64,000 nucleotides of DNA from Rhodoflexus caldus (GCF_021206925.1 NZ_JAJPRF010000002.1:434001-498000), one strand, 5' to 3'; counted from the stretch's first letter, positions 3,969 through 20,286 are shown. Made by a program: numbers and translations. Notes: generated by a model from the letters alone, not told the origin.

Positions 3969-4075
3969 CACTTTATTTTGCCTAATACAGACTTCACTTT
4001 CTGGCTAAATAAGATGGTTTGCTTACGCTGTAACTTTAGTAGCAATATCGTAAGAAGCGGCAGTACAACATTTAA

Positions 4076-4137
4076 TCACATATTGGACAGAATCCCACTA
4101 TATGGTTAATTGCAGGATTCTGTCGCAACCATGTGAT
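4076..4137. repeat. Long imperfect palindrome downstream of the PKD/T9SS gene
   Basis: Inner arms GACAGAATCC (4086-4095) and GGATTCTGTC (4115-4124) are perfect; outer arms ATCACAT (4076-4082) and ATGTGAT (4131-4137) extend the structure across small unpaired stretches. It lies 7 bp past the stop of the 2180-residue gene. There is no T-run on the minus strand, so it is more likely an mRNA 3' stabiliser or dispersed repeat than a classical terminator. Confidence 0.55.
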
Positions 4138-4144
4138 CAAAAAA

Positions 4145-7100
4145 CTATTCCTTCATCACACGCAATACAAGCGATTGCGTATCCGAAACAATCTTCATCA
4201 GGTATAATCCCGTCGGCAGGTGTCCGAAGTCAAACTCGCGGGTGAAATCTTTGGCTTGTACCTCAAAGGTTTCACTGACGGGTACGCCGCGCAGGTCGTA
4301 GAACTGAATCTGAACGTTGGCTTCATCACCCATTTTTACATCCAGCGTAAACTTGCCGCGTGCAGGATTGGGGAATACTCGCGCCTCTACAATGCCTTTG
4401 AACGCGGCACTCGGCGGTGCGCCCTGTGCCAGCCCGTCGTTGGGCAGCCTGCCGCCCTGCCGCTTCACGTTGATGCGCTTGGTGCGGGTATGCTCGCAAA
4501 CGCCGTTGCTTACTTTGAGCGTTACGTCAAACGTTCCTTCGCGGGCGTAGCTGTGCACGGGGTTTTGCGCAGTGCTTTTGTTGCCGTCGCCGAAATCCCA
4601 CTCGTGGCGGTTGGGCGCGGGATGCGATACGTTGATAAACTGCACCTGCTCCCCTACTCCAACCTCGCTTTGCGACAAGAACTGCGCCTCTATGCTCTGC
4701 GGATTGCGGATGATATTAACGGTGCGAACGGTGGTACAGCCTTTATTGCTGACGGCGGTCAGGGTGTATCTGCCTGTTTGCGTGATAGTTACCTTGTTGC
4801 CGCTCGCCGTGAAGTTGCCGCCTTCGCGTGTCCATGTATAGCGAACGTCCGCCTGTGCGTTGATTTCCAACTCCAAGCTGTTACCTTCGCAAAGTTGCTG
4901 TTCCTGAGGCAGTTGGACTTGCGGTAGCGGGTTTACCTTCACCTCTACCTCATCAGTTGCCGTACATTGCCCGTTGCGAACACGCACGCGATAGACACCT
5001 GCCCGCGAAACGGTAATGGTGCGCGTGGTTTCGCCCGTGCTCCATTCGTAGCTCATGCCCGGGTTACCCGCGTCTAAGGTTACGGTTTCGCCCTCGCAAA
5101 TTTCGCGGTCATCGCCCAAATTGACCTCCAACGGCGGTTCTTCTATCGTGATATTAACCGAAGCGGTTGCCTCGCAGAAACCTTCGCGCATAACGGTTAC
5201 GGTGTAGATGCCGGAACGGCTCACGCGCAGGGTTTGCCCCGTAGAACCATCCGACCAGCGGAAGCGTGCACCTGCATTGCCTGCATTGAGCGTTACGGGC
5301 GTACAAGACACCTGATTAGCCCCCAAATCTACGGTGAGTTTGGGGCGGGTACGCACGATGAAATCTTTCACGCGCACGCAGCCCTCGGCATCGGTCATTT
5401 CTACGCGATAACTGCCTGCCTGACGAACGCTGATGCTGCGCACGGTTGCACCCGTGCTCCAACGGTAGATTTGCGCCGCATCGGCTTCCAAAGTTTCGGT
5501 ATCGCCTTCGCAAAGGGTCAGCTCGGCAACGGGCAGCGTTTCAGGCTCGCGGATGGTAACGGTTACGGAACTTTGCGCTTCGCAAAAGCCCTCGCGCATG
5601 ACCGTTACGGTGTAAGTGCCGGAACGACTCACGCGCAGGGTTTGCCCCGCAGAACCGTCCGACCAGCGGAAACGTGCACCCGCATTGCCCGCATCCAATA
5701 CAACGGGTTGGCAAGAGGTGCGGTTTTGTCCTAAATCTACGCTCAGGCGCGGTTTTACATTCAGGCGGATTTCATGGCGGCTTGTGCAGCCTTGCGGCGT
5801 AGTGATTTGCACGACATAAACGCCTGCCGTGCGTGCCTGAATGGTTTGCGTAGTTGCGCCCGTGCTCCACAAGTAGCGGCTGCCTGCGTTGCCCGCATCC
5901 AATACGGCAGTTTCATCGCCGCAAATTTCCATCTGATTTTCAGGCACTTTTACCTCTTCGGCAAAATTCACTCTCACCGAACGGCGGATGGTGCAGCCGT
6001 CTTTGCTGACTTCTACCCAATACGTGCCGCTGCGGCGAACCGTCAGCGTGCGTGCGGCAGAACCGTCCGACCAGCGAAAAGTTGTACCCGGGGCAAAGTT
6101 GCGTGCATCCAATACCTCTACCTCGCCAAAGCATTTGTTGATTTCTTCGGGAAACTCAAACGGTTCAGGACCTCCTACGGCAACATCCACCCACGACTCG
6201 GCAGAGCAACCGTCTTGGCTGAAAACGGTCAGCATATAGCGCCCGGGTTTGTCCACTTCTATGGCGCGGGTTGTCTCACCCGTGCTCCACAAATAACGCA
6301 CGGCATTCTGGTTGATGGCAGGCTGCAAGGTCAGCTTTTCGCCGCGGCAGAGGATTTCACGCGACTTAGGAAACTGTAAAAACGGTTGCTTTTTGATGCG
6401 GATGAAAACTTCGTCCGTCCGCTGACAGCCACCACCGTCGGTAACGGTTACGGAATATGTGCCTGTTTCGGTTACGCGGATGAAGCGCGTGGTTGCACCC
6501 GTGTTCCACAAGTAAGTGCTGCCCGAATTGCCCGCGTCTAAGAATGTTTCGCCGCAAGCCTCACGGTCGGCACCCAAGTTGAGATTAATGGTTGAGAGCA
6601 ATTGCACATCTACGGTTTCGGTGATTTGGCAGCCCGCGGGCGAAGTAACCGTAACGCTGTAAATGCCCGAAGCAGTTACGTTGATGGTGCGCGTGGTTGC
6701 GCCCGTACTCCACAAATAGGTGCTGCCCGGATTTTCGGCATCTAAGGTAAGGTTTGCCGCACACGTGCCAATTACACCGCCAAAACTCAACACGGGTTTA
6801 GGATGGATAACCACATTTTGCGTGAACACGTCCATACAGCCAAAGCCGTTGGTTGCCGTCAGCATAACGGTGTAAGTGCCTGCCGTTGCATAGGTCTTCA
6901 CGGGCGATTCGTCGGTTGAAGTATCACCGTCGCCGAAGTCCCACACATAAGTCGTTCCTGCGGCAAAGGTGTTGGTCGTATTGGTGAACGCAATGGCTTC
7001 GGTTTCGCAGCGCAAGGCAGGCACGGTAAAGGCTGCCGCAGGGCGCGGATGAACGGTGATGTTTTGTGCAGTCTGATGCGTACAGCCGTTGATGTCGGTA

Positions 7101-10100
7101 ACGGTCAGGGTTACGGTAAACGTTCCGAAGGCAGCGTAGGTATGCGTGGCATCGTCGTTGCCGCCCAGCGTTACCACAGGCGAACCGTCGCCAAAATCCC
7201 ACACCGAACTAACCAATGCGTGAACGCCTGTGGAAGTATTAGTAAGGGTCAGCGGACTGTCTTTGCAAATGTTGGCAGCCGTAAAAGCAGCGGTAGGCAG
7301 CGGATGCACGGTAAAATTTTGCGTGAAGCTGTGCGTACATCCCGTATTGGAAACAACGGTCAGCGTTACGGGATATGTGCCCGCCAATGCGTACACATGC
7401 GTTACGTCGTCCATTGTGTTTGCACCCGTCAGAACGACTAAGGGCGAACCATCGCCAAAATTCCAGCGCGATTCCACAATTTGGGGCATTGCCGCCAAGC
7501 CACCCGGGTCGGCAATGGACGAAGTGTTGGTAAACACATACCCCGCGGGGTTGATACACGCCGCCCCGACGGATGTAAACGCCGCCACAGGATTGGGGCG
7601 AACCTCTACGTTGTATTCCACAAATTGCGTACAGGCATCGGGCGCATCGGTTGTTACGGTCAGGCGAACGGTGTAAACGCCCGCCGCGGCATAGGTATGG
7701 CTTACGGCATTCAGGGCATTTGCACCTGTCAGGGTTTGCGTGTTGCCATCGCCAAAGTTCCAGACCGAAGTAACAATTTGCGGGGCTGTTGCAAAGCCAA
7801 TCGGCAAAGGAACGGCGGATGTATTGGTAAACGTAGTTGGGGCGGTGTGGCAAACCTGCGTGAAGGTAAAATTCGGCACAGGCTGCGGATGAATGGTGAT
7901 GTTTTTGGTCAGAACAACGGTGCAACCCGTATTGGAAACTACGGTCAGCGTTACGGCATAAACGCCCGCTGCGGCATAGGTATGGCTCACGGCATCCAAA
8001 GCATTTGCGCCCGTCAGCACTTCCAATGGCGAACCGTCGCCAAAATTCCAGCGCGATTCGGTGATTTCGGGTGTTACTGCCAAGCCGCCCGGGTCGGCAA
8101 TTGCCGAAAAATTCAGGAACTCAATGCCCGCACCCGTAAAGCAAAGGTCGTCTAAGAAAGCAAAATCAGGGACGGGATTGGGGCGCACTTCTACGGTTTG
8201 CGTAACGGTATGCGAACAGGCGGCAGGCGAAGTCGGGGCGTTGGAAATGACGGTTAGGGTTACGGTGTAAACGCCCGCTGCGGCATAGGTATGCTGCACC
8301 ATGTCCAGCGCATTTGCCCCTGTCAGGGTTTGCGTGTTGCCGTCGCCAAAATCCCACACCGAAGTGGCAATTTGCGGCAATACTGCCAGCCCCAAAGGCT
8401 GCGCAACGGTGGAAGCGTTGGTAAACGTAGTCGGCGTACCTGCGCACACGTCGGTTTTGGTGAAAGCTGCCACAGGTATGGGGTACACATCTACCACCTG
8501 CGTAATTTCGGTGATACAGGCAGGCACGGCGTTGGAAGTCGTGCGCAGCGTAACGTTGTAACGCCCCGCCGTTGCATAGGTATGCGAAACATTGCCCGTT
8601 CCCGCTACGATTTGTGAATCGCCGTCCCCAAAAATCCATTCTGACTGCACAATGGCAGGCGTTACCGATAAGCCCGGCGGGTTGGCAATCGTAGAATTGT
8701 TGGTAAAAGCCGTTGCCGAACCGTTGCAAACAACGGTTGCCGCAAAGGCAGGCGCAGGATTGGGGCGTACTTCTACGGTTTTTTCCGTGAAAGCCGTACA
8801 GCCGTGCGCCGAAGTCATCGTCAGGCGAACGGTGTAAACGCCCGGCGCGGCATAGGTATGATTCACCGCATCCAAGGCATTTGCGCCTGTGTTGGTCAGC
8901 GTGTTGCCGTCGCCAAACTGCCAGAAACTTGTGGCAATGCTGACGGGCATCCCGCTTGGCGTTGCGCTTGGGAAACTCAACGGTGAGGTAATTGGCGTGC
9001 CCGTAACGGTAAAATTACTTGCCGTACCTGCGCAAACTTCCGTAAAGTTGAAATCGGGAACAGGCAGCGGACGCGCCTCAACGGCTTTTACAGTCTCATC
9101 GGTGTAGGTGATGCGGTCAACGCCGCCCGAACGGTACTTGGCAGTCAGCCGCAAACGGACGTTGTACACGCCTGCGGTGGTGTAGGAACGGTTGTGCGTG
9201 TCGGCATCGCTTGCTTGGTCGGTCAAGGTGCGGATTTGAGGCGAAGAACCCGCCCCGATGAAATCCCACTCAACGGTGTACACTGCCGAATAGCCCGCTG
9301 CGGTTAAGTCCGCCGTAAGGGCGGTGTTCAGGTTAGCCGTTGCAAAGTCATGATTGCCGCCCGTGCAGGCATTGGTTGCCGTAAAGTCAGGCGTAAATCG
9401 CGGGAATACGTTCACGGCATAGGTGCGCGAATTGGTACAGCCCCGCGCATTGGTCAGCGTTATGGTATAGAGGAAGCGACCCACGGTTGCAGTATTGACT
9501 GCATGGGTTTGCACCAAATTCAAAGTCGGTAAGGTGTGGCTCACGAAAGCACCGCTCCAACGAGCATCAATCAGGTTGGCACCGTTGCCGTCTGCCGCCA
9601 CGTCGTTATAGACGCGCAGCGTGAGCGGATTTCCCTGAATCACATAAATTTCTACGGTCTGCCCCGTTGTTGCCGATGTGGTCGGTGTTGCAGCATCTGG
9701 GTTGTCTGCCAAGCGGGGGGCATTGGCGCAGTTGGCATCGGCAAGCGTCAGGATGGTATTGTTGCCAATGGGTGCGGCAGCTGTACTTTCCAGAAAATTA
9801 CTTGCCGCATTGGGCGTTCCGCCAAAGTTTTGGAACGTTGCCCCGCCGTCGGGCGAAACAAACAGTGCGTAGTTGTTTTCGTTACCTGCTACCTCATCGT
9901 CCACATAACCCAAGCGAACTTGCGCGTTGGCGGCATTGGCAGCATTGAAGCCGAAATAGCGCGCAATACTGCCGTCGGCGGCATTAGCAAAAGCCGTATG
10001 CCCGCGCCATATTTGCGTAGTGCCCATGTTAGCACCGCCCGTAGTGATGCCCAAACCCGTTCCGCGCAGGTTCAGCATGATATTGTTCGGGGCGAAAGCG

Positions 10101-10687
10101 GGTAAGGTCATGCGAAGTAAACCATTACCATAGGCACGACTAAAGTTATTTTCATTGTCCAAAAAACCTCCCTCATCGCTACCCGAAACAAAATTGAGCA
10201 AATTCAGGTCAAAGCCGCTCAAGTTTAACCTCCCACCATTGAATGAAAGGCGATTGCGCAAATCTATGGCTCTGCCCAGCGTAACTTCGCCCGAAGGCTT
10301 GTTGAGGTCTAATCGGAAGAAATTGATGTTTTGCACCGTTGCGGAAAGCAACTGATTGGCTGCGCCGTTGAGCAAAACCGTTCCTTCGGTGGGGAACAAG
10401 CCGTTGGTTGCCTGATGCGAAAGGTTGCCGCCCAGCGAAAGCAAGCCCGTGCTTGGAACGGTAGCGGTATTCAAATTGGTAAAACTGCCCGTAACGCGCA
10501 GCGTAGCACCTGCGTCAATGGCAGTTGTGCCGTTGGCAGCATTCTGAAAATCACCGTTGACGTGCAGCAGTGCGCCGTTGCGAACGGTGATATTCGTTCG
10601 GTTGTGTATCAATTGGGCAAACAAGGGCGGCGCACTCAGCAACAAAAGCCATAACCAACCCCAATGCCGTAAACTTCGGATGCTCAT
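4145..10687 (-). CDS. Giant secreted multi-PKD protein with T9SS sorting domain
   Basis: A 2180-residue exported protein. A signal peptide ends near residue 24 (LLLLSAPPLFA). Residues 25-320 form a beta-rich N-terminal region with repeated LxLxGNL-type strands. About nine PKD domains follow from roughly 430 to 1297, most with the W(D/N)FGDG signature. Ten short Ig-like repeats with the core YLWSTGATT or FRWSDGS run from 1300 to 1995, then one more PKD domain (HEWDFGDGN, about 2003-2075). The last 80 residues (VFPNPARGKFTL, LPTGLYLMKI, a final lysine-glutamate) are a type A T9SS sorting domain, so the protein is expected to cross the outer membrane by T9SS and be anchored or released. Such proteins are usually adhesins or matrix components. 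It is the last gene of a five-gene leftward operon, 22 bp after the collar-like gene. Near-identical repeats in the PKD part make the DNA internally repetitive. Confidence 0.85.
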   Translation of the reverse strand: MSIRSLRHWGWLWLLLLSAPPLFAQLIHNRTNITVRNGALLHVNGDFQNAANGTTAIDAGATLRVTGSFTNLNTATVPSTGLLSLGGNLSHQATNGLFPTEGTVLLNGAANQLLSATVQNINFFRLDLNKPSGEVTLGRAIDLRNRLSFNGGRLNLSGFDLNLLNFVSGSDEGGFLDNENNFSRAYGNGLLRMTLPAFAPNNIMLNLRGTGLGITTGGANMGTTQIWRGHTAFANAADGSIARYFGFNAANAANAQVRLGYVDDEVAGNENNYALFVSPDGGATFQNFGGTPNAASNFLESTAAAPIGNNTILTLADANCANAPRLADNPDAATPTTSATTGQTVEIYVIQGNPLTLRVYNDVAADGNGANLIDARWSGAFVSHTLPTLNLVQTHAVNTATVGRFLYTITLTNARGCTNSRTYAVNVFPRFTPDFTATNACTGGNHDFATANLNTALTADLTAAGYSAVYTVEWDFIGAGSSPQIRTLTDQASDADTHNRSYTTAGVYNVRLRLTAKYRSGGVDRITYTDETVKAVEARPLPVPDFNFTEVCAGTASNFTVTGTPITSPLSFPSATPSGMPVSIATSFWQFGDGNTLTNTGANALDAVNHTYAAPGVYTVRLTMTSAHGCTAFTEKTVEVRPNPAPAFAATVVCNGSATAFTNNSTIANPPGLSVTPAIVQSEWIFGDGDSQIVAGTGNVSHTYATAGRYNVTLRTTSNAVPACITEITQVVDVYPIPVAAFTKTDVCAGTPTTFTNASTVAQPLGLAVLPQIATSVWDFGDGNTQTLTGANALDMVQHTYAAAGVYTVTLTVISNAPTSPAACSHTVTQTVEVRPNPVPDFAFLDDLCFTGAGIEFLNFSAIADPGGLAVTPEITESRWNFGDGSPLEVLTGANALDAVSHTYAAAGVYAVTLTVVSNTGCTVVLTKNITIHPQPVPNFTFTQVCHTAPTTFTNTSAVPLPIGFATAPQIVTSVWNFGDGNTQTLTGANALNAVSHTYAAAGVYTVRLTVTTDAPDACTQFVEYNVEVRPNPVAAFTSVGAACINPAGYVFTNTSSIADPGGLAAMPQIVESRWNFGDGSPLVVLTGANTMDDVTHVYALAGTYPVTLTVVSNTGCTHSFTQNFTVHPLPTAAFTAANICKDSPLTLTNTSTGVHALVSSVWDFGDGSPVVTLGGNDDATHTYAAFGTFTVTLTVTDINGCTHQTAQNITVHPRPAAAFTVPALRCETEAIAFTNTTNTFAAGTTYVWDFGDGDTSTDESPVKTYATAGTYTVMLTATNGFGCMDVFTQNVVIHPKPVLSFGGVIGTCAANLTLDAENPGSTYLWSTGATTRTINVTASGIYSVTVTSPAGCQITETVDVQLLSTINLNLGADREACGETFLDAGNSGSTYLWNTGATTRFIRVTETGTYSVTVTDGGGCQRTDEVFIRIKKQPFLQFPKSREILCRGEKLTLQPAINQNAVRYLWSTGETTRAIEVDKPGRYMLTVFSQDGCSAESWVDVAVGGPEPFEFPEEINKCFGEVEVLDARNFAPGTTFRWSDGSAARTLTVRRSGTYWVEVSKDGCTIRRSVRVNFAEEVKVPENQMEICGDETAVLDAGNAGSRYLWSTGATTQTIQARTAGVYVVQITTPQGCTSRHEIRLNVKPRLSVDLGQNRTSCQPVVLDAGNAGARFRWSDGSAGQTLRVSRSGTYTVTVMREGFCEAQSSVTVTIREPETLPVAELTLCEGDTETLEADAAQIYRWSTGATVRSISVRQAGSYRVEMTDAEGCVRVKDFIVRTRPKLTVDLGANQVSCTPVTLNAGNAGARFRWSDGSTGQTLRVSRSGIYTVTVMREGFCEATASVNITIEEPPLEVNLGDDREICEGETVTLDAGNPGMSYEWSTGETTRTITVSRAGVYRVRVRNGQCTATDEVEVKVNPLPQVQLPQEQQLCEGNSLELEINAQADVRYTWTREGGNFTASGNKVTITQTGRYTLTAVSNKGCTTVRTVNIIRNPQSIEAQFLSQSEVGVGEQVQFINVSHPAPNRHEWDFGDGNKSTAQNPVHSYAREGTFDVTLKVSNGVCEHTRTKRINVKRQGGRLPNDGLAQGAPPSAAFKGIVEARVFPNPARGKFTLDVKMGDEANVQIQFYDLRGVPVSETFEVQAKDFTREFDFGHLPTGLYLMKIVSDTQSLVLRVMKE

Positions 10688-10709
10688 ACCGTAAGGGTTT
10701 AAGGTGATA

Positions 10710-11636
10710 TCAGTTGATGCGCATGATGAACGCTAAGGCAAAGTAGGGCGGGCGGTTTTCGTGCGGTGCGCCGCTGCCTGCGGTACTGGTCGTAAAGCTG
10801 TGTGAGTGTGCACCGGTGGTGTTACTTTGCACCTGCCCGCGCCATCGGTTGTCGTTGGGGTCTGAGTCGCTGCCGCCGCCGAAGCCCATATCTACGGTGG
10901 TTGAGTTGCCCACATAGAACCTTGTGCGCCAGCTAAGCCCTGATGCATCCGTACCTTCGGTCATGTGGAAATGGTCGCCGTCCCAAGAAGTAAAACCCGT
11001 GTGGTTGTGTGCGGGCATTTCGGCAGCGGAAAGTGCCACCTGATTTGCCCCGCCGATGTTACCGGGTGCATAGCTGCTACCCGCACCTACGATGAAGCGG
11101 TCGCGAAGGTCGGGGGTGCCATTGCTGCCGTCGCACAAAGACCAGCCCGCGGGAATGGACGCAATAGAACCGCTCCACATGATAATGCCGCCGATGGGAA
11201 CAGTGCCGTTGCCGTTGATAGTGCCGCTGACGTTCACCGTACTTGCCGTAATTGTGCCCGCAGTAGAGAGGTTATTGGCTGTCAGATTGCCGTTGATGAG
11301 CGCATTGCCTTGTACTTCCAATCGGTTGGTTGGTGCGGTAGCATTACCGATTCCGACATTGCCGTTGTTGAAACTCCATGCGTCCAATACTATCCATTGC
11401 GCACCCGAACGGTACACAAACTTGTTCAGCGTTGTATTGAAAACCAACAAACCGTTGGCAGGCGTGGCAATTACATTGTGGTCGGGTAAGCGGGGCACTA
11501 ACAGCCCGCGGTCGGCAGCGGTAACATCTAACATGGCAGAGTTATCGGGCGTGGCAGTGCCGATACCTACGTTTTGCGCCCATGCCTGAACAGACAGCAG
11601 GGCAATTGCAATCAAGAAAATGCTGAATCGTTTCAT
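10710..11636 (-). CDS. Secreted protein with phage tail-collar-like domain
   Basis: A 308-residue protein with a clear signal peptide (MKRFSIFLIAIALLSVQAWAQ). After it comes NVGIGTATP, the opening common in secreted Bacteroidota proteins with tail-fibre-like stalks, and a low-complexity stalk region (LINGNLTANNLSTAGTITAS). Residues from about 150 on carry the collar pattern: GGIIMWSGSI, PAGWSLCDG, PDLRDRFIVGAG, PAHNHTG and a final HENRPPYFALAFIMRI. The domain is known from phage fibres but is widespread in secreted bacterial proteins; no other phage gene is nearby. It sits between the FN3 gene (18 bp upstream) and the PKD gene (22 bp downstream). It probably forms a trimeric fibre tip or stalk; that is inference. 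Confidence 0.8.
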   Translation of the reverse strand: MKRFSIFLIAIALLSVQAWAQNVGIGTATPDNSAMLDVTAADRGLLVPRLPDHNVIATPANGLLVFNTTLNKFVYRSGAQWIVLDAWSFNNGNVGIGNATAPTNRLEVQGNALINGNLTANNLSTAGTITASTVNVSGTINGNGTVPIGGIIMWSGSIASIPAGWSLCDGSNGTPDLRDRFIVGAGSSYAPGNIGGANQVALSAAEMPAHNHTGFTSWDGDHFHMTEGTDASGLSWRTRFYVGNSTTVDMGFGGGSDSDPNDNRWRGQVQSNTTGAHSHSFTTSTAGSGAPHENRPPYFALAFIMRIN

Positions 11637-11654
11637 ACGGCTTCTTACGGGTTT

Positions 11655-13625
11655 TTATTCGTTGACGGTGGTTTTGAGGGGTTGAGAGTGTGCAACCGCG
11701 CCGTTGGCATAGGTGCGCACTTGGTAGTAATAAGTTTGTCCGGGCTTTACGTCTGCATCGGAAAATTTCGCTTCGGTGAGCATTCCGCTGACGGGTCGCC
11801 AAGAGGTGTTTTCCTGTTTGCGATAGACAATGAACCCTTGCAAGGTCGGTTCTTTGGGTTTGTTCCAACTCAATTGCAATTGCTTGTTGCGCTTGTCGTA
11901 GGCGGCGGTTAAACCGCCTGCTTTCAGTGCTTCGGCGTTGGCATTTGCCGTCAGCGATGCGGCAAGCGGTCGCGCCTGCGGGGAAGTGTTACCGCTGCTG
12001 TCTGTGGCAGTGAGCGTATAGCGATAAAGTTTACCTTCCTGCAAGCCCTTGTCGGTAAAAGCAGTTTGCGCGGGGGGCAGCATCGCGCCCAAGGGCACAA
12101 AACCCGCCGAATCAACGGCGCGGAAGAGTTGATAACCTTTCAAATCGCTTTCAGCATTGGCAAGCCAACTAAGGGTAAGGCTTTTATCGGCATTAACGGT
12201 AAGGGCAGTAAGGACGGGCTGTTCGGGGGCTGTAATGTCGGGCATTCTGCCTTCGGCTGCCTGCGAACCTCTGCTTTCGTTGCCCGAAGAGTCTAAGGCT
12301 ACCAATCGGTAAATGAACTTGTTGCGGGCAACGGCGGGCAGTTTGTCCACGTAGCTTGTGGCGGTGAGCACGTCGTTGTGAATCAATGCGAACGATTCGG
12401 GGCGGTTTTCGTCTATGGTGCGATAAAGCCGATAGCCCAGCAAGTCGGGTTCGGTGTTGGCTTTCCATTTGAGGTGCATTTCACCGCTTCGGGCTTCCAG
12501 CGTTAAGCCTTGCGGGGGTGCGGGCGGCTCTTTGTCGGGCAAAATGGCAAAAGTTGTGTCCGAATCGCTGCGGTTGCCTGCGCGGTCAAAGGTTGCAACC
12601 TTGTAGAACCACACATCGGCAGCGGGCGGCTCATCTGTAAACACTGTATCGCGGGGCTGTTGCAAACGGTTGTTGATTTTTCGGAAGCCCGTTTGCTCTT
12701 TGCGCCCGCGGCGGTAGATGTCGTAACCCGCCACATCGGGCGAAAGCGATGATTGCCAGCGAAGGGCAATTTTGCCGCTCTTCGGGTCTGCCTGCGAAGC
12801 CAGCGCACCTGCCGGAACAGGTGGTATGCGGTCTTCGGCACGCACTTCCACCGCGGCGGAAGGCTGCGTTTCCCTGCCGAAAAGGTCTATGCCCACTACC
12901 TCATAGGCATAACTTACGCCGTATTGCAGGGTTGTATCGGCATAAAGAAAACCCTGCTTTTGCAAATCGTCCAAGCTGCTCATCAGCGGCAATTCGTTGA
13001 GTTTTTTGCGCCCTTCGGCAACCGATGTGCGATAGACGTTCACTGCCAAAAATCGGGAAGGTTCGGCTTTCCATCCCAACTGAAAAATTCTGTCGGTCAA
13101 AAGATGGACGATGCCGACGGGCGGGGCTTCCAACACTTCCTCACCCATGGTTACGGCGGGCGACGTATTGAGCACCTTGCCCGATGCGCTGATGACGCGG
13201 TATTCATAGCTCTGCCCCGCAACGGCAGTTGCGTCGGTGTACCAATTGCCCAGATAGCGGGCAAAATCGGGGCTTAATACCGATTGAATTGTAATGAATG
13301 CACCTGCCAGCGTGGCTAAATCGTCGGCGTTTAGTTTATCGGCTAATTCGCGGTAAGATGCCAGCGCGGAATTGCGGTCAAGGGCTTCTTGGGGCAACGG
13401 GACATCGCCTTTTTTAACGGGTTTTGCCGTCAGTTTTTCCCATTGGTTGCGCCCCGCAGGGCTGCGAAACACGTTCACACCTTCGGCAACATACACCGCA
13501 CGCGGAAACCAGCGAACAATCATGCCGCCTTGGGCAGGGGTGGCAATCACACGGTTATCTTGTGCAAAACTTACGCCTGCAACCGCCATGAGCCACAGGC
13601 AAACGGAAAAGATTTTGGCTTTCAC
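11655..13625 (-). CDS. Secreted fibronectin type III repeat protein
   Basis: A 656-residue protein with a signal peptide (LWLMAVAGVSFAQ). At least four well-formed FN3 modules are visible, each with a GYDIYRR/GYRLYRT/GYQLFRA/GFIVYRK strand: about 295-385, 390-475, 485-570 and 575-655. The N-terminal 280 residues hold more degenerate FN3-like units (RAVYVAEGVNVFR, RFLAVNVYRTSV). There is no T9SS sorting domain, so unlike the PKD protein it may stay in the periplasm or use another route. It starts 5 bp after the stop of the 1577-residue gene, indicating translational coupling. Likely a structural or protein-binding partner of the other products of this operon. Confidence 0.8.
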   Translation of the reverse strand: MKAKIFSVCLWLMAVAGVSFAQDNRVIATPAQGGMIVRWFPRAVYVAEGVNVFRSPAGRNQWEKLTAKPVKKGDVPLPQEALDRNSALASYRELADKLNADDLATLAGAFITIQSVLSPDFARYLGNWYTDATAVAGQSYEYRVISASGKVLNTSPAVTMGEEVLEAPPVGIVHLLTDRIFQLGWKAEPSRFLAVNVYRTSVAEGRKKLNELPLMSSLDDLQKQGFLYADTTLQYGVSYAYEVVGIDLFGRETQPSAAVEVRAEDRIPPVPAGALASQADPKSGKIALRWQSSLSPDVAGYDIYRRGRKEQTGFRKINNRLQQPRDTVFTDEPPAADVWFYKVATFDRAGNRSDSDTTFAILPDKEPPAPPQGLTLEARSGEMHLKWKANTEPDLLGYRLYRTIDENRPESFALIHNDVLTATSYVDKLPAVARNKFIYRLVALDSSGNESRGSQAAEGRMPDITAPEQPVLTALTVNADKSLTLSWLANAESDLKGYQLFRAVDSAGFVPLGAMLPPAQTAFTDKGLQEGKLYRYTLTATDSSGNTSPQARPLAASLTANANAEALKAGGLTAAYDKRNKQLQLSWNKPKEPTLQGFIVYRKQENTSWRPVSGMLTEAKFSDADVKPGQTYYYQVRTYANGAVAHSQPLKTTVNE

Positions 13626-13630
13626 GGCGG

Positions 13631-16600
13631 CTATTGGATTTTATGGGTGAACTGTTGGGTCTCAATGTCAAAGTCAATGCCTACTACGTGCACTTTGCCG
13701 CGCAGTTTGCCGCTGACGGAAATTTCATTCTTGAAGCGGGCTATCAAATCGCCTTGGAAAATGACATCCACCAGTCGCAAGTTGCCTTTGCCCACTACAA
13801 CAAGTTCCCACTCTACGCCTACCGCTGCGCGTGCTGTTGCGCTCAACCGAATGTTATCCAGTCCAAGTTCGGGTTGGAAAATTACTCTGGTACTTGCCAT
13901 TGCCTGCAAATAGGCGGAAAGGTACGGGCGAATGGCTGCCACTTCGCGAATGCCTATCCACGGCAGTTGCAAGTCTATGCCCGCTTTGAAACCGACCCCT
14001 ACTTCAAATTCCTTTTCGTTGATGTCCAAAAAGCCTGTCATGGCAACCCCCAAACACATGGGCATCATGTAGGCGGGTCGTTCGCGGCTGCCTATGTTGA
14101 GCCGCACATGCTGCGGGCTAAGGTCAATGGCAAAATTGTTTTGTCCACAAACAACGGGGGCATTAAACATGGCGTTGGCTTCCAATCGTATCCGCGTATC
14201 GGGCACGGAAATCACGGCTTTTCCGTCAATGGCTGCCACAGAGTAGGTAAACATGCCCGGCAAGCCGACGTTGCCCACCTTGCCGAATATCTTCATGCCA
14301 ATGATGTAGCCCAAACGCGAATCGCCGGAAACAGGGCGGTCAAACCTGCCGCCGTTGAGTGAAAGCTCTATCATGCCGCCAAACTGCGCAATCATACCCG
14401 AGGTGGGCATATCGGAAAATTGCGCCCGCAACATCATGCCGAACCAATTGTCGGGGTCGGGAACGAAGGTCAGGCTGTGCATACTGATGTCTTCGCCGAT
14501 GTCTTCAAAGCTGCTGCGCTTCATACCGAAGTAGAACACGCCTTCCATGCCTGTGAGGAACAACACCTTCGGCACAACGGGAATACCTTTGGAAAGCATT
14601 TCCATCACTTTGGCTTTGGTAGATTTGCCCCCGTTGGCGTTGTTGCCCGCATTTTTGGCTGCATTGGCAACGTTCTGCCCCGCATCAAACAAAGAGTTAC
14701 CCTTGGGCGAAGGCTTGACAGGGAACAACTGATTGCCCGTTACTTTGAAATAGATTTTTCCCGCCACCCACTTTGCGCCTTCCAGAGCTACGTTGCCTAC
14801 TGCCTTCGCTGCTGCCCCCGCTTTGGCTTTCAAATAGGCTTTTACGGTAAGTTCCAACTCACCGCGCAGGGCTATGTCGTCGGACGTTTTGACCAAATTT
14901 GCCCACAGCAAGGCAAGCCTTCTTTGCTCATGTTCGGTCAGGCGTTTTTCCAATGTGCCGCTGCGGTCGTCCATGCGTTTGATGAAAATCAGCTCATCGT
15001 CGGTTTTGACCTTGCGGGCAAGAATCTCTTCCAACTCTTTTTGCATGAGTTGCTTAATGTCTTCGGACGAAAGCGGCACGCCGTATTTTTCCTCTAATTG
15101 TTCGGCAATGGCGCTTTCGCGTTGGAAGTCTGCCAAAGCCGCATCCATCAGCGGGGCAACGGCAGCGCGTGATTCTACCTTTCCGCCAACGGCAGCCCCG
15201 AACTGAATCAGCCCGAAGGGATATTTATCCTTTGCGCCCGCTATTGCCAAACCGTAGAGTTGAATGGCAAAAGGCAATTCCATTTTGCCGTCTAATGCGC
15301 CCATGAAGGCATCGCCGTATATCTGATGCCCGTAGTAGAGTTTCAACATGCCTTCCATGGAAAACAATAGCGGCACGGCAACGCGCATGTACATGGAATC
15401 CATCACAATTTTGCCGTCCGCATCGGTTTGTTTGAACATGCCGCCCCTGAAAACGGCAGGCACGGAAGCACTGTTGCCGCTGATGCCTGCGGTGGGTCGG
15501 GGGTCTAATCTGTCGGGCGGCATACCCGATGTGCGCGGCGGAATTTCCCGCGCCCTTTCGCGGTCGCTGTCGGAAATGCCCGTATTGGCGCGGGCTAACA
15601 TCTCTTTAAAATCCATCGCGCTGATAAAGTCGGCGGTCGGAACGCCTTCTTTGCCCGTCGCATTCGCCATCATGACAATTTCGGCACGCACACCAAAGGC
15701 ATATTGACCCGCCAAGTTTGCTGCCATCACGTGTGTAACGCGGATTTCGTTGCCCGAAGGCAATTTGCCCTTGACTTGATTGGTAAGTGCCACCTGCCCG
15801 TTGGGAATACCGAAGCCAATTCGCCCGTCGCCCCAAAGGCGCAAATGCTGCAAGCCGGGCATGGTCAGTTCCAAACTGCGCCATTCGGCATCTAAGGTGA
15901 GTTCTAAGCGTTCGTTATCGGCAAAGGCAGCGCGGGCAATCTGCATTTCCACGCGCTGGTCGCCGCCGTCAGGGTTAAAGGCAAAGTAACGCCCCGTCAG
16001 GTCTTCTTCCATGTGCCCGGGCTGAATGCCTTGCGAAGTGATGTCGGCAGTATAGTTCAACTCTTGGTCGCCTGCCAGCAGCGGAATGCGGATAAAGCCG
16101 CGCAGAGTGCTCTTGGTCAGCACGTTGTCTTCAACGTTGAGTTGTAAGCCGCGCAGGTTGCCGCCAAAGGTGTTGAATAGCGCAGGCAGTTCGTTGTTGA
16201 AATCCCGTTGGAAGCGCAGCGTCAGCCCGCCGCCCGTCAGGAAGGCATGGCTTTCGGGCAACGATTGCAGGTCTGTTTCCCAAGCGCGGGGGAAATAGAA
16301 CTGATTGCTGCCGTCAAACTTTTGCGGGATTTGCAGGCGGTAACTTTCCAAGTAAATGCCTTTCCATGCGGGATTGTCGGCATGGATGCCCGCCGATTTT
16401 TCTTCGGACAAATCCACAACCAATTTTTGAGGCAACAACTGCATCAGCGTACCCGGAACGGCTGCCAGCGGACGGTCAAAGGTCAGGTTGTTTTCCAAGT
16501 AGAACAGTTGGGCGGCTTGCACAAAGCGCACCGACAGCGACTCATCGGTCGGCGCTTTGAACTTGTTTTCGGGCAGCAGCAAATCGCCGTCCATCTGCAA

Positions 16601-18364
16601 CTCATAGCGGTTGTCTTGGTTGATAATGATGCGGGACGAAACGGCTAAGTTGAGACGGAAACGGTAAGGTTCTGCCAACTCAAAGCGGTTGTTTTCTGCC
16701 GCAGCCGTACTTCCCAAAAGTTTAAAATCGTCGTAGCCGAAGCGCGCTTTGGCAAACAGCACTTCCGCCGCTTTGCCGCTTGTAACGGGGTGCGGCAGTG
16801 CCCATTTGGTTTCACCTTCTATCTGCAAAAAGTCTTTGGTAAGAATCAGGTTTTGCGGGTAGAAATAGGCTGCGCCGTTTTCGGGCAGCGCGGGGGTGAG
16901 TTCTATGCGTTCCCATTTGAGCGGATGCACGATTTCACCGCTTGCCAATACCATGCGTCCCGCGATGTTTTCTAACTTAATGTCCTTAAAATCAAACTCT
17001 TCCGAATCGCCCGCCAAGTTGATTTTGATGCTGCCGCGCCCCGAAAGTTTGCTCAAATCGGCATTGGACGTGCTGATGACGGTAACTTCGTGTTTGCCTG
17101 CCAAGAATTTTTCCACAACAGGCGGTCCGTTGAAAATCAGTGCGTTACTTTTGGCAATTTCCTGCTCGCCGCTGTATGCCAGCACGTGCCATGCGTAGGC
17201 TTTGCCCGATTCGGGTCGCTGCCCGCGCAAGATGTATTCCCAACTGCTACCCGCGGCAGGCGTTTCGGCGGTTTCCTCTTCAAACCATGCAGGATTGACC
17301 GCTACGGCACTTGCAGCATCCTGACCGGGCAGAAGTTCTATGGCGCGGAACTTGTAGCGCACCGCCTGCCCCGCAACCAGATTATCGGGCAGCGACCAAG
17401 CAAATTTCAACAGGTCGTTTTTACCGAAAGCATGCTGATTGTCAGGCTTTTGTAATGCAATTCTGCCGCCTTCGGGGTAGCCGTACCGAAACCAGCATAC
17501 CTGACTGATACCGTTGTTTTTGAACAGGTTGCGCCCGTCGCGGTCTGTTGCCTGCACCGTCCAAACGTAGCGCTTGGCAAGTTCCAGCGGCGGGGCACTG
17601 ATGTTGTAGTTATAGCTGGTGCGCCCCGCAATCGGTTCGGATTCAAAAATCGGGATGGCTTTGCCGTTGTTGATTGCCAACATTGGGTCGGCTTGCGGGT
17701 CGGTTACCTCGTAAACTCTCAACACATATTCCGTGTTTGCCTGAATAGCTGCCGTACCGTTGGTCAGTTGCCATTGGAACTGCACGTTTTGCGGCTCTAT
17801 GGGCTTAACAGAAGTTCCGCAAACGGGCAAAATCGGCGTAGGTTCGTCAATGGTCATCAGCCATGCGTCGTAGCAGCCCGCCCGCGAAAGCACCTGATTG
17901 CTGCGGTAGTCTATCACCTCAAAACAGAAACTGTACAGCCCGTCGGGCAGGCGGTCGGTGCGGCGCAGTTCGTCGGCACTCATGCCGCTGATTTGCATGT
18001 TGTTCAGGTCTAAATATTGCGAAAGGTCGGCGGCGGTCAGGCGCAAAGGCGTGCCGGGCACAATGGTAAACGGTGCAGCGGGACGAAAATCGGGGCGGGT
18101 GCGCAAACTCATGCGGCTGCTTTGAATACTGACGCGCAAATAAAATTCCCACGAAGGTTCGTTAAAGTCGTTAAAAGCGACATTGACGACTAATTTTTCG
18201 CCTGCGGGCGACAAATAATCGCTCAAAAGCGTAGAATACGGCGGCTGAACAATCGGATTGACCCGAAACGGAAAGGTTTGCGCCCGTGCCGTTTGTTGCC
18301 CTGCCCCTGCCAGAAATACCATGCACAAAATTTGCAGTAATTTGTGCCGTACAAACCGACTCAT
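13631..18364 (-). CDS. Very large exported protein, probably TANFOR-type
   Basis: A 1577-residue protein with signal peptide (MVFLAGAGQQTARA). The first 400 residues contain sandwich-like units with WEFYLRVSI, YVLRVYEVTDP and YVWTVQATDRDGRN, resembling fibronectin/TANFOR-type domains of Cytophagia and Tannerella; I recall this family but cannot verify it here. Residues about 430-950 are beta-rich with LTFDRPL, LYLENN and RLWGDGRIGFGIPNG strands. A charged, probably helical stretch follows (about 1075-1160, for example LEEKYGVPLSSEDIKQLMQK), then an alanine/glycine/asparagine-rich linker (DAGQNVANAAKNAGNNANGG), then a C-terminal beta-rich region. No sorting domain is present. The gene lies 19 bp after the barrel gene and is central to the operon. 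Confidence 0.7.
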   Translation of the reverse strand: MSRFVRHKLLQILCMVFLAGAGQQTARAQTFPFRVNPIVQPPYSTLLSDYLSPAGEKLVVNVAFNDFNEPSWEFYLRVSIQSSRMSLRTRPDFRPAAPFTIVPGTPLRLTAADLSQYLDLNNMQISGMSADELRRTDRLPDGLYSFCFEVIDYRSNQVLSRAGCYDAWLMTIDEPTPILPVCGTSVKPIEPQNVQFQWQLTNGTAAIQANTEYVLRVYEVTDPQADPMLAINNGKAIPIFESEPIAGRTSYNYNISAPPLELAKRYVWTVQATDRDGRNLFKNNGISQVCWFRYGYPEGGRIALQKPDNQHAFGKNDLLKFAWSLPDNLVAGQAVRYKFRAIELLPGQDAASAVAVNPAWFEEETAETPAAGSSWEYILRGQRPESGKAYAWHVLAYSGEQEIAKSNALIFNGPPVVEKFLAGKHEVTVISTSNADLSKLSGRGSIKINLAGDSEEFDFKDIKLENIAGRMVLASGEIVHPLKWERIELTPALPENGAAYFYPQNLILTKDFLQIEGETKWALPHPVTSGKAAEVLFAKARFGYDDFKLLGSTAAAENNRFELAEPYRFRLNLAVSSRIIINQDNRYELQMDGDLLLPENKFKAPTDESLSVRFVQAAQLFYLENNLTFDRPLAAVPGTLMQLLPQKLVVDLSEEKSAGIHADNPAWKGIYLESYRLQIPQKFDGSNQFYFPRAWETDLQSLPESHAFLTGGGLTLRFQRDFNNELPALFNTFGGNLRGLQLNVEDNVLTKSTLRGFIRIPLLAGDQELNYTADITSQGIQPGHMEEDLTGRYFAFNPDGGDQRVEMQIARAAFADNERLELTLDAEWRSLELTMPGLQHLRLWGDGRIGFGIPNGQVALTNQVKGKLPSGNEIRVTHVMAANLAGQYAFGVRAEIVMMANATGKEGVPTADFISAMDFKEMLARANTGISDSDRERAREIPPRTSGMPPDRLDPRPTAGISGNSASVPAVFRGGMFKQTDADGKIVMDSMYMRVAVPLLFSMEGMLKLYYGHQIYGDAFMGALDGKMELPFAIQLYGLAIAGAKDKYPFGLIQFGAAVGGKVESRAAVAPLMDAALADFQRESAIAEQLEEKYGVPLSSEDIKQLMQKELEEILARKVKTDDELIFIKRMDDRSGTLEKRLTEHEQRRLALLWANLVKTSDDIALRGELELTVKAYLKAKAGAAAKAVGNVALEGAKWVAGKIYFKVTGNQLFPVKPSPKGNSLFDAGQNVANAAKNAGNNANGGKSTKAKVMEMLSKGIPVVPKVLFLTGMEGVFYFGMKRSSFEDIGEDISMHSLTFVPDPDNWFGMMLRAQFSDMPTSGMIAQFGGMIELSLNGGRFDRPVSGDSRLGYIIGMKIFGKVGNVGLPGMFTYSVAAIDGKAVISVPDTRIRLEANAMFNAPVVCGQNNFAIDLSPQHVRLNIGSRERPAYMMPMCLGVAMTGFLDINEKEFEVGVGFKAGIDLQLPWIGIREVAAIRPYLSAYLQAMASTRVIFQPELGLDNIRLSATARAAVGVEWELVVVGKGNLRLVDVIFQGDLIARFKNEISVSGKLRGKVHVVGIDFDIETQQFTHKIQ

Positions 18365-18383
18365 AGTGTATAACGGTAATAGT

Positions 18384-20087
18384 TTAAAAGCCGAAGGTAT
18401 AGTTGTAATTCAACCCGGCACGCAGTTCGGTGAAAGAGGGTGCATTGGCTTGCTTAGAGGCACGGCTCAAATACATCACGTTCAGCCCCAGATTGTGCGA
18501 AGTTGCTACGCGATAGTTCATCATGGCACGCAGGTTGAAATTGCCGCTCAGAAGTTCGCCCGCTGCATAAGAGTTCAGCAGGCTGCCCGAAGCATTCAGG
18601 CGCATTTTGCGTTTGAGCAAGCCCTTGGCGGCGGTCAGCGTAGGACCTGCCACCAAATTTTCAAAACCCGTGCTGATGTTACGACTGATATTAAAAGAGA
18701 GAGCCAAACTTAAATCGGTAGGAACCAGCGTGTACTGATACGAACTCAACCAGTTCCAGAAGGTGGTTTTGGAATTATCGTTATCGTTAGCGCCCTGAAA
18801 GTTGAAGTTGCTCATCAGCACGTGGCGGGTGCGTTCGTTGCCCGTGTTGTAGTTGGCACTCATGCCCGCGCTGTTGGTGATTTGCAACAAACTCAACGAA
18901 TCGGGGTTGATTTGCGTATTGTTGAAGTCTGTGGCAGCCAGCAACACCTTGGTTGCCGAACTGAAATTGGAATAGTTTGCCGAAACATTCAGCTTTTCGT
19001 TAGGTGCATAGCTGATGTTAAACGAACCCGAAAGGCGCATCATTTCGTTGGCAAGCCAACGGCTCAAATTGTTGCGCTGAAAGCCGCCGCCCGCGGAAAT
19101 GTTGATTTTATTGTCCAGCATCCGCCAACCAACCGAAGCCTGCACGTCTTCCAAATCGTTGTTGAGAAAAACTGAACCCGTTGTTTTGTAGTCGGGGTCT
19201 ATGCGGCGGTAGAGCAACCGCAATTGATATTTGTCTGCCGCATAGGTCGTTTCGGCGTTGAGGGCGGCGTTTACCTGCGTGCTCAAATTCCTTTGCGAAA
19301 GCAGCGCGGCAGCCATGCCCTTCAAACCCGAAAAATTAGTACCGTCGTTTTCAAGTCGGATGTCGTTAGTAAATGCACTAAGCGCGTATTCAGCCCGAAA
19401 GTTGAGCCGCTTGGTGAGTTGTTGCCGCACTTGCAACCCCAAAATGCCGTTTTCTACGGGTGTCAGTCCTTCGGCAGTAGTCAGCGGCACGGAATTGACG
19501 TTATCTTTTGCCTGAAAGTAAATCAAATCTGCCGAGCGGTTTTCCTGTTTGCCGAGCGTGAGTTTTACGCCCTGCCCCCACCGTTCGTAGGCGGGAACGC
19601 CGCGCACAATGCCCTCTACCCCGCCTTGCGCAATGGCACGCACAAAACGCCCGTAGAGCGCCGTAACCTTCACGGGCGAATCTTCGGGTGCAACTTGAAT
19701 ACCTGCCCCCAAAAACACGTTGCCCGAAAGTGTGTAAGGTGAAAATTCCAAATTGCGATAGCCCAAATGCGCCGTTACGGACTTGTAGCGCGGGCTTAAC
19801 CCGAACTGATTAAAAGGCTGTGTAAAACGTCGGTTGAGTTGGCTGAAAGTGGCAGACAGCGGAATATCTACGCCGTAAAGGCTGATATTGAGCGTGCCGT
19901 TCAGTTGCCAAAAGAAGGGGTCGCGACGTGCTGCAATACCGCTTGCACTGTACCCCAAAAACGAACCACCCAGCGAACCGCTTACACTGACAGGCTTTTC
20001 ATTTTTCAGATTTGCTAAATCTTGCCCAAACGCCCGATTTTGCAGAAAAATTACAGCAAAAATGAATATGTAGTAAATTTTTTTCAT
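18384..20087 (-). CDS. Outer-membrane beta-barrel protein, first gene of the five-gene surface operon
   Basis: A 567-residue protein with signal peptide (MKKIYYIFIFAVIFLQNRAFG). The mature protein consists of alternating amphipathic strands with periplasmic turns, for example LSGSFNISYAPNEKLNVSANYSNF and ELRAGLNYNYTFGF; the terminal phenylalanine is the classic barrel-insertion signal. It has no plug or carboxypeptidase-like domain, so it is not a TonB receptor, and it is larger than PorP/SprF. It heads the 16-kb operon behind a -7 element at 20122-20129 and would be the membrane anchor or exit pore for the secreted products downstream. That role is inferred from gene order only. Confidence 0.75.
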   Translation of the reverse strand: MKKIYYIFIFAVIFLQNRAFGQDLANLKNEKPVSVSGSLGGSFLGYSASGIAARRDPFFWQLNGTLNISLYGVDIPLSATFSQLNRRFTQPFNQFGLSPRYKSVTAHLGYRNLEFSPYTLSGNVFLGAGIQVAPEDSPVKVTALYGRFVRAIAQGGVEGIVRGVPAYERWGQGVKLTLGKQENRSADLIYFQAKDNVNSVPLTTAEGLTPVENGILGLQVRQQLTKRLNFRAEYALSAFTNDIRLENDGTNFSGLKGMAAALLSQRNLSTQVNAALNAETTYAADKYQLRLLYRRIDPDYKTTGSVFLNNDLEDVQASVGWRMLDNKINISAGGGFQRNNLSRWLANEMMRLSGSFNISYAPNEKLNVSANYSNFSSATKVLLAATDFNNTQINPDSLSLLQITNSAGMSANYNTGNERTRHVLMSNFNFQGANDNDNSKTTFWNWLSSYQYTLVPTDLSLALSFNISRNISTGFENLVAGPTLTAAKGLLKRKMRLNASGSLLNSYAAGELLSGNFNLRAMMNYRVATSHNLGLNVMYLSRASKQANAPSFTELRAGLNYNYTFGF

Positions 20088-20121
20088 GCAAATTCTTTAA
20101 AGCGTTAGCAAGCGATTTCCA

Positions 20122-20129
20122 CAAATGTA
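20122..20129 (-). promoter_or_regulatory. -7 element for the surface operon
   Basis: Minus strand reads TACATTTG, an exact TAnnTTTG match, 35 bp before the barrel gene ATG. A -33 TTG at standard distance is not seen. Confidence 0.45.
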
Positions 20130-20252: not shown

Positions 20253-20286
20253 AAAAAGTGAGACCCATAAAAGAGCCTCACTTTTT
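20253..20286 (-). terminator. Rho-independent terminator of the MscS gene
   Basis: AAAAAGTGAG (20253-20262) pairs with CTCACTTTTT (20277-20286). On the minus strand the stem is followed by a run of T. It lies 64 bp after the MscS stop and separates that gene from the surface operon. Confidence 0.85.

What the first reader, a model, noticed from the sequence alone, without database searches (positions are those of the whole stretch)
4145..20129. A 16-kb operon of five exported proteins: candidate undescribed surface apparatus
Seen: five genes on one strand with gaps of 5-22 bp, each with a signal peptide: an outer-membrane barrel, a 1577-residue protein with a helical middle, an FN3 protein, a collar-domain protein and a 2180-residue PKD protein with a T9SS sorting domain. 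Only the last has a sorting signal. Known: barrels, FN3, collar and PKD domains all serve extracellular assemblies. Inferred: the products form one extracellular structure, with the barrel as anchor and the PKD protein as T9SS cargo. The internal order (barrel, scaffold, FN3, fibre tip, giant adhesin) is unlike known gliding or PUL operons.
Basis: partly seen in the sequence, partly recalled or inferred. Interest (0 to 1): 0.65.

Follow-up and report, generated by a model that had tools for sequence, protein, structure and literature searches.

The report
Toxin-free TANFOR surface operon with barrel
Five neighbouring bacterial genes make one conserved set of exported proteins: a very wide outer-membrane barrel plus four surface proteins, related to a published family of bacterial toxins but without the toxin; the barrel turns out to be the constant, previously unreported partner of that whole toxin family and may explain how its members leave or attach to the cell.

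Summary
In detail: five same-strand genes with gaps of 5-22 bp, all with signal peptides, the last a T9SS type A cargo. The system idea holds too. Barrel > 1577-aa protein > FN3 > collar (1-3 copies) > giant T9SS protein recurs in four genomes of three other families, rearranged in two more, and all five genes are under purifying selection. It is not wholly undescribed: the 1577-aa protein is a distant TANFOR protein, a family published in 2020 as polymorphic toxins near FN3, PKD and T9SS genes. New here: (1) the barrel, in no Pfam or NCBIfam family and predicted at about 25-26 strands, is the near-obligate TANFOR partner (67 genomes with barrel, 65 with TANFOR, 61 with both, p=1e-59; usually directly upstream; fused to TANFOR in two genomes); the 2020 text mentions no barrel. 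(2) The window belongs to a toxin-free TANFOR branch with conserved C-terminus, no adjacent immunity gene, and collar-type fibre genes (8/15 loci versus 0/56 in the toxin branch). Best reading: a T9SS-linked surface structure in which the barrel anchors or exports the TANFOR chain, serving adhesion rather than killing. The gene system is shown; the mechanism is inferred.

The parts
20253..20286 (-). Terminator-like hairpin between the upstream MscS-like gene and the operon
   Evidence: 14 pairs plus T tail
20122..20129 (-). TACATTTG, match to the Bacteroidota -7 promoter element TAnnTTTG, 34 bp before the barrel start
   Evidence: pattern search; a consensus match only, no more frequent in the window than chance
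18384..20087 (-). Outer-membrane beta-barrel, 567 aa, about 25-26 strands predicted; constant partner of TANFOR proteins
   Evidence: AlphaFold pLDDT 87; nearest PDB folds MtrB, ushers, LptD; no Pfam/NCBIfam family in 53 homologues; co-occurrence
13631..18364 (-). TANFOR-type exported protein, 1577 aa, no recognisable toxin domain
17879..18250 (-). TANFOR domain (aa 39-162)
   Evidence: TIGR02542, 29 bits, E 7e-7, below curated cut-off 67
17480..17800 (-). Ig-like domain (aa 189-295)
   Evidence: PF25788, 28.7 bits, cut-off 27.4
15215..17329 (-). Conserved beta-rich body (aa 346-1050), marker of the toxin-free TANFOR branch
   Evidence: alignment A7; profile search; AlphaFold pLDDT mostly 80-90 up to about aa 900, lower after
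14585..15214 (-). Insert (aa 1051-1260), helical, length varies between families
13634..14584 (-). Conserved C-terminal beta region (aa 1261-1577), where the toxin sits in the toxin branch
   Evidence: homology to the last residues in 10 loci outside the genus; dN/dS 0.058
11655..13625 (-). FN3-repeat exported protein, 656 aa
10710..11636 (-). VGIGT-stalk / phage-collar-type protein, 308 aa, ends PPYFALAFIMRIN
4145..10687 (-). Giant PKD protein, 2180 aa, T9SS cargo
9698..10615 (-). Conserved N-terminal domain of the giant (about aa 25-330)
   Evidence: homologous in the other six operons compared, G399 only through an intermediate
4148..4378 (-). T9SS type A sorting domain (aa 2104-2180)
   Evidence: TIGR04183 62 bits, cut-off 23
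4071..4141 (-). Long hairpin just after the last stop codon, likely transcript end
   Evidence: -34.7 kcal/mol, z -6.07

Best explanation
The five genes are one operon encoding a T9SS-linked surface system from a toxin-free branch of the TANFOR family. Shown: gene set, conserved order, purifying selection, near-obligate barrel-TANFOR pairing, natural barrel-TANFOR fusion, absence of a recognisable toxin or adjacent immunity gene. Inferred: all five proteins enter the periplasm by Sec; the giant PKD protein crosses the outer membrane through T9SS by its type A CTD; the N-terminal TANFOR/Ig part of the 1577-aa chain docks in or threads through the wide barrel, which exports or anchors it, a division of labour like the barrel/exoprotein pairs of two-partner secretion though with an unrelated barrel; the conserved beta-rich body and C-terminus are displayed outside with the FN3 protein and the collar-tipped fibre. 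The branch keeps a fixed C-terminus and adds fibre tips instead of a toxin, so it most likely serves adhesion or cell-cell/surface contact rather than killing.
For: Order barrel>TANFOR>FN3>collar>CTD giant in G399, G056, G311 and G042, rearranged in G067 and G414; giant N-termini homologous. Barrel and TANFOR co-occur: 61 of 67 and 61 of 65 genomes (p=1.5e-59), 54 of 82 barrels have TANFOR directly downstream; 40 of 44 and 40 of 42 genera, p=7e-35. Distances correlate, r=0.92 over 65 pairs. One-chain fusions L159 and L160. Collar in 8/15 toxin-free loci versus 0/56 toxin-branch loci, p=6e-7. Toxin-branch C-termini are polymorphic (9% identity; nucleases, deaminase, ADP-ribosyltransferase); no toxin domain in 15 toxin-free members, C-terminus conserved, dN/dS 0.058. 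SprA in 9 of 9 hosts.
Against: No experiment shows surface location, export route or adhesion. The TANFOR match is below the curated cut-off. The barrel fold is a prediction without a complex; the strand count is read from secondary structure. Some TANFOR genes sit far from a barrel, so co-expression is not always enforced. The C-terminal body could hide an activity no library knows. One toxin-free TANFOR genome (G364) has no intact barrel.
Confidence: 0.55

Rival explanations
1. The barrel is only an anchor or shuttle for T9SS cargo (working like PorP/SprF for type B cargo); the TANFOR, FN3 and collar proteins leave by T9SS through unrecognised signals and the barrel holds the giant or the TANFOR chain at the surface without being a pore.
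For: In many genomes the T9SS-A giant sits directly beside the barrel while TANFOR lies elsewhere; PorP/SprF genes and type B giants neighbour the barrel in several loci; PorP-like barrels are known anchors (PMC9143113) and shuttles (PMC12618676).
Against: The barrel is not PorP/SprF by profile comparison; its tightest partner is TANFOR, not the giant; about 25-26 strands is larger than an anchor would seem to need.
Confidence: 0.25
2. It is still a weapon: the insert or C-terminal region of the 1577-aa protein carries an unknown toxin, with the collar fibre for target recognition.
For: The family's known members are polymorphic toxins (PMC7073777); collar-type domains often form receptor-binding tips; the insert varies between families.
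Against: No immunity-like gene follows; the C-terminus is conserved across families and under strong constraint, dN/dS 0.058; no toxin domain in any of 15 members.
Confidence: 0.15
3. A nutrient-uptake or other unrelated locus whose genes merely lie together.
For: Large barrels also serve uptake.
Against: Same gene set in several families, co-occurrence and fusion, no SusD-like or enzyme domain in the five proteins.
Confidence: 0.05

Closest known systems
TANFOR polymorphic toxins of Bacteroidetes (Jana, Salomon and Bosis 2020, PMC7073777)
   Same: N-terminal TANFOR domain, signal peptide, FN3/PKD/T9SS-CTD neighbours, host with T9SS
   Different: No recognisable toxin, no immunity gene, conserved C-terminus, collar fibre gene; the barrel partner is not mentioned in that paper's text
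Two-partner secretion / contact-dependent inhibition (CdiB-CdiA-CdiI)
   Same: Gene logic: barrel, then giant exoprotein with conserved N-terminus, then in the toxin branch a small immunity-like gene
   Different: No Omp85/POTRA or TPS domain match; larger barrel; T9SS-linked partners
SprB/SprF and PorP-like anchors of T9SS type B cargo (PMC9143113, PMC12618676)
   Same: Outer-membrane barrel beside a giant T9SS adhesin
   Different: Barrel not homologous to PorP/SprF; cargo here has a type A CTD
Phage tail collar / Gp10-like fibre tips
   Same: Weak collar and Gp10_C matches, VGIGT stalk, conserved C-terminal motif
   Different: Has a signal peptide and sits in a secretion operon, not a phage module

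Membership tests
TANFOR polymorphic toxins | TIGR02542 TANFOR domain at the N-terminus | tested here: inconclusive
   E 7e-7 but 29 bits, cut-off 67; none of 396 genomes reaches the cut-off
TANFOR polymorphic toxins | C-terminal toxin domain | tested here: not met
   no Pfam/NCBIfam toxin; C-terminus conserved
TANFOR polymorphic toxins | Immunity gene downstream | tested here: not met
   the next gene, 5 bp on, is the FN3 protein
TANFOR polymorphic toxins | FN3, PKD and T9SS-CTD neighbours; T9SS in host | tested here: met
Two-partner secretion | Barrel gene next to giant exoprotein | tested here: met
Two-partner secretion | Omp85/POTRA transporter and TPS domain | tested here: not met
   no Pfam match in 53 barrels and no TPS domain in the 1577-aa protein
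PorP/SprF T9SS barrels | TIGR03519 homology | tested here: not met
T9SS type A cargo (2180-aa protein) | Signal peptide, TIGR04183 CTD, host with SprA | tested here: met
   62 bits over cut-off 23; SprA
Phage tail collar (308-aa protein) | PF07484 above cut-off | tested here: inconclusive
   22.2 of 24 bits; orthologue 27.4
TANFOR export system | Barrel physically binds or exports the TANFOR chain | not testable with these tools
   fusion and co-occurrence only

The most novel reading that the evidence does not exclude
The wide barrel and the TANFOR domain form a separate outer-membrane export or anchoring route of Bacteroidota, two-partner-like but unrelated to Omp85 transporters, used by one branch for toxins and by another, the window's, for a collar-tipped surface structure.
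Probability: 0.35. Interest if true: 0.85.

Novelty: new variant of a known kind. Interest (0 to 1): 0.63.

Why it matters
How TANFOR toxins leave the cell was left open in 2020; the authors could only suggest T9SS. A dedicated barrel that accompanies them almost without exception, and is sometimes fused to them, gives a concrete candidate to test. The toxin-free branch shows that the same machinery has apparently been used for another surface task, with phage-fibre-like tips.

Tried and rejected
PorP/SprF identity of the barrel rejected. PDB sequence relatives of barrel, TANFOR N-part and body: none significant. Fold search of the 1577-aa body: no meaningful match, TM about 0.1. Curated TANFOR model as a survey tool: too strict. 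Single-chain TANFOR with T9SS CTD: none found in the 80 loci. Paralogue locus in the same genome as a second complete copy: its TANFOR gene is broken. Large giants of the distant third class: no Pfam domain. A first CTD profile drifted and was rebuilt.

Full report
Observation. The five open reading frames, their strand, the 5-22 bp gaps and the domains are as described. The barrel starts at 20087; the stretch to 20129 is leader with a TAnnTTTG element. A terminator-like hairpin separates the operon from the upstream MscS-like gene, and a strong hairpin follows the last stop codon. In a congener (G002) all five genes are intact and conserved (the giant is compared over 2135 codons, to the end of the fetched stretch): dN/dS is 0.041 for the barrel, 0.097 for the 1577-aa protein, 0.158 for FN3, 0.107 for the collar and 0.085 for the giant.

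What the big protein is. The 1577-aa protein matches TIGR02542 (TANFOR) weakly, E 7e-7 and below the curated cut-off. A profile of its N-terminal 345 residues finds a large Bacteroidota family; the 23 places that TIGR02542 itself finds at E up to 1e-5 fall on hits of this profile. TANFOR proteins were described in 2020 as polymorphic toxins whose neighbourhoods are enriched in FN3, PKD, SprB and T9SS CTD domains, with T9SS export proposed (PMC7073777).

The barrel. A profile of the 567-aa barrel and the TANFOR profile were run over the same 396 genomes of the class. Strong barrels occur in 67 genomes, strong TANFOR in 65, both in 61 (p=1.5e-59). Of 82 barrels, 54 have TANFOR directly downstream on the same strand, 47 of them within 200 bp. 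By genus it is 40 of 44 and 40 of 42 (p=7e-35). Only the best few candidates per genome were scored, so counts are lower bounds. In 80 named loci the gene after the barrel is TANFOR in 58, and barrel and TANFOR distances correlate at r=0.92 over 65 pairs (no species-tree control). Two genomes of one family carry a single protein of about 1390 aa with a TANFOR domain (E 4e-12 in L159) and a C-terminal copy of the barrel (E 8e-16 in L159). None of 53 barrels matches any Pfam or NCBIfam family, the barrel is not PorP/SprF, and the 2020 paper does not mention a barrel in its text (its supplements could not be read). AlphaFold gives pLDDT 87 and about 25-26 strands; the nearest solved folds are MtrB, chaperone-usher pores and LptD, at low TM-scores, so this is a size class and not a homology.

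Two branches. In the toxin branch a common order is FN3, CTD giant, barrel, TANFOR, small immunity-like genes, and the C-terminal 350 residues are unalike (9% identity) with WHH, colicin-DNase, EndoU, AHH, deaminase, PT-HINT and ADP-ribosyltransferase domains among them. In the window's branch the body (aa 346-1050) is conserved and the C-terminus (aa 1261-1577) aligns to near the last residues in ten loci outside the genus. No toxin domain is found in 15 members, the next gene is usually FN3, and within the genus the C-terminal part is among the most constrained (dN/dS 0.058). A strong body match occurs in 9 of 396 genomes. Barrels of this branch cluster on the tree, most of them in one supported clade, but a single origin is not shown.

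Order conservation. Around the branch members, barrel>TANFOR>FN3>collar>giant CTD is found in G399 (three collar genes), G056 (two), G311 and G042; G067 and G414 carry all five rearranged; G361's contig ends after TANFOR; G364 has TANFOR alone. The giants' N-terminal 330 residues are homologous (window against G042 4e-25, G067 7e-23, G414 4e-17, G311 4e-11, G056 6e-9; G399 only through G067). The type A CTDs of three of these giants were checked with NCBIfam and pass. Collar genes occur in 8 of 15 loci of this branch and none of 56 of the toxin branch, although long TANFOR genes often push the collar beyond the fetched stretch. SprA is present in all nine hosts.

Mechanism. Sec export of all five and T9SS export of the giant follow from signal peptides and CTD (established knowledge of T9SS; PMC12618676 for type A cargo and PorV). 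That the barrel exports or anchors TANFOR is inferred from the pairing, the fusion and its width. That the structure adheres rather than kills is inferred from the missing toxin, the missing immunity gene, the fixed C-terminus and the collar tip. The AlphaFold model of aa 401-1577 is confident only for the first half and resembles no solved fold.

Verdict. A real, conserved operon; a new variant of a known kind. Its most useful result is the barrel as constant partner of a published toxin family.

Noticed in passing
L032 (G000:C18:1-17000), 0.3-10.3 kb: The same genome holds a second barrel (566 aa, intact, 25% identical) beside a TANFOR gene broken into pieces with in-frame stops; the pieces carry CarboxypepD_reg, Laminin_G, FN3 and a T9SS CTD. 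A related copy in L033 is open over 1787 aa up to the contig end.
   Followed up: partly
L161 and L162: A more distant class: barrel-like proteins of 860-906 aa, a short 385-aa TANFOR protein, one or two small proteins and a 2000-2200-aa giant with no Pfam domain.
   Followed up: partly
L148-L154: In some Bacteroidota genomes the barrel sits next to a T9SS-A giant, or next to a ~950-980-aa unknown protein and an FN3 gene, while TANFOR genes lie elsewhere in the genome, like orphan effector modules.
   Followed up: partly
window 33657-40886: A second giant exported protein (2409 aa) with a T9SS type A-like sorting domain, apart from the operon.
   Followed up: no
window 4145-20087: The operon is richer in G+C (54%) than the window (48%).
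   Followed up: no
TIGR02542 over 396 genomes: The curated TANFOR cut-off is reached by no genome, although 65 have strong relatives by profile; the model misses most of the family.
   Followed up: yes
L022, L053, L056, L063, L065, L071, L072, L094, L097, L142: PorP/SprF genes, often with type B giants, lie beside the TANFOR barrel in several loci, a second link to T9SS.
   Followed up: partly
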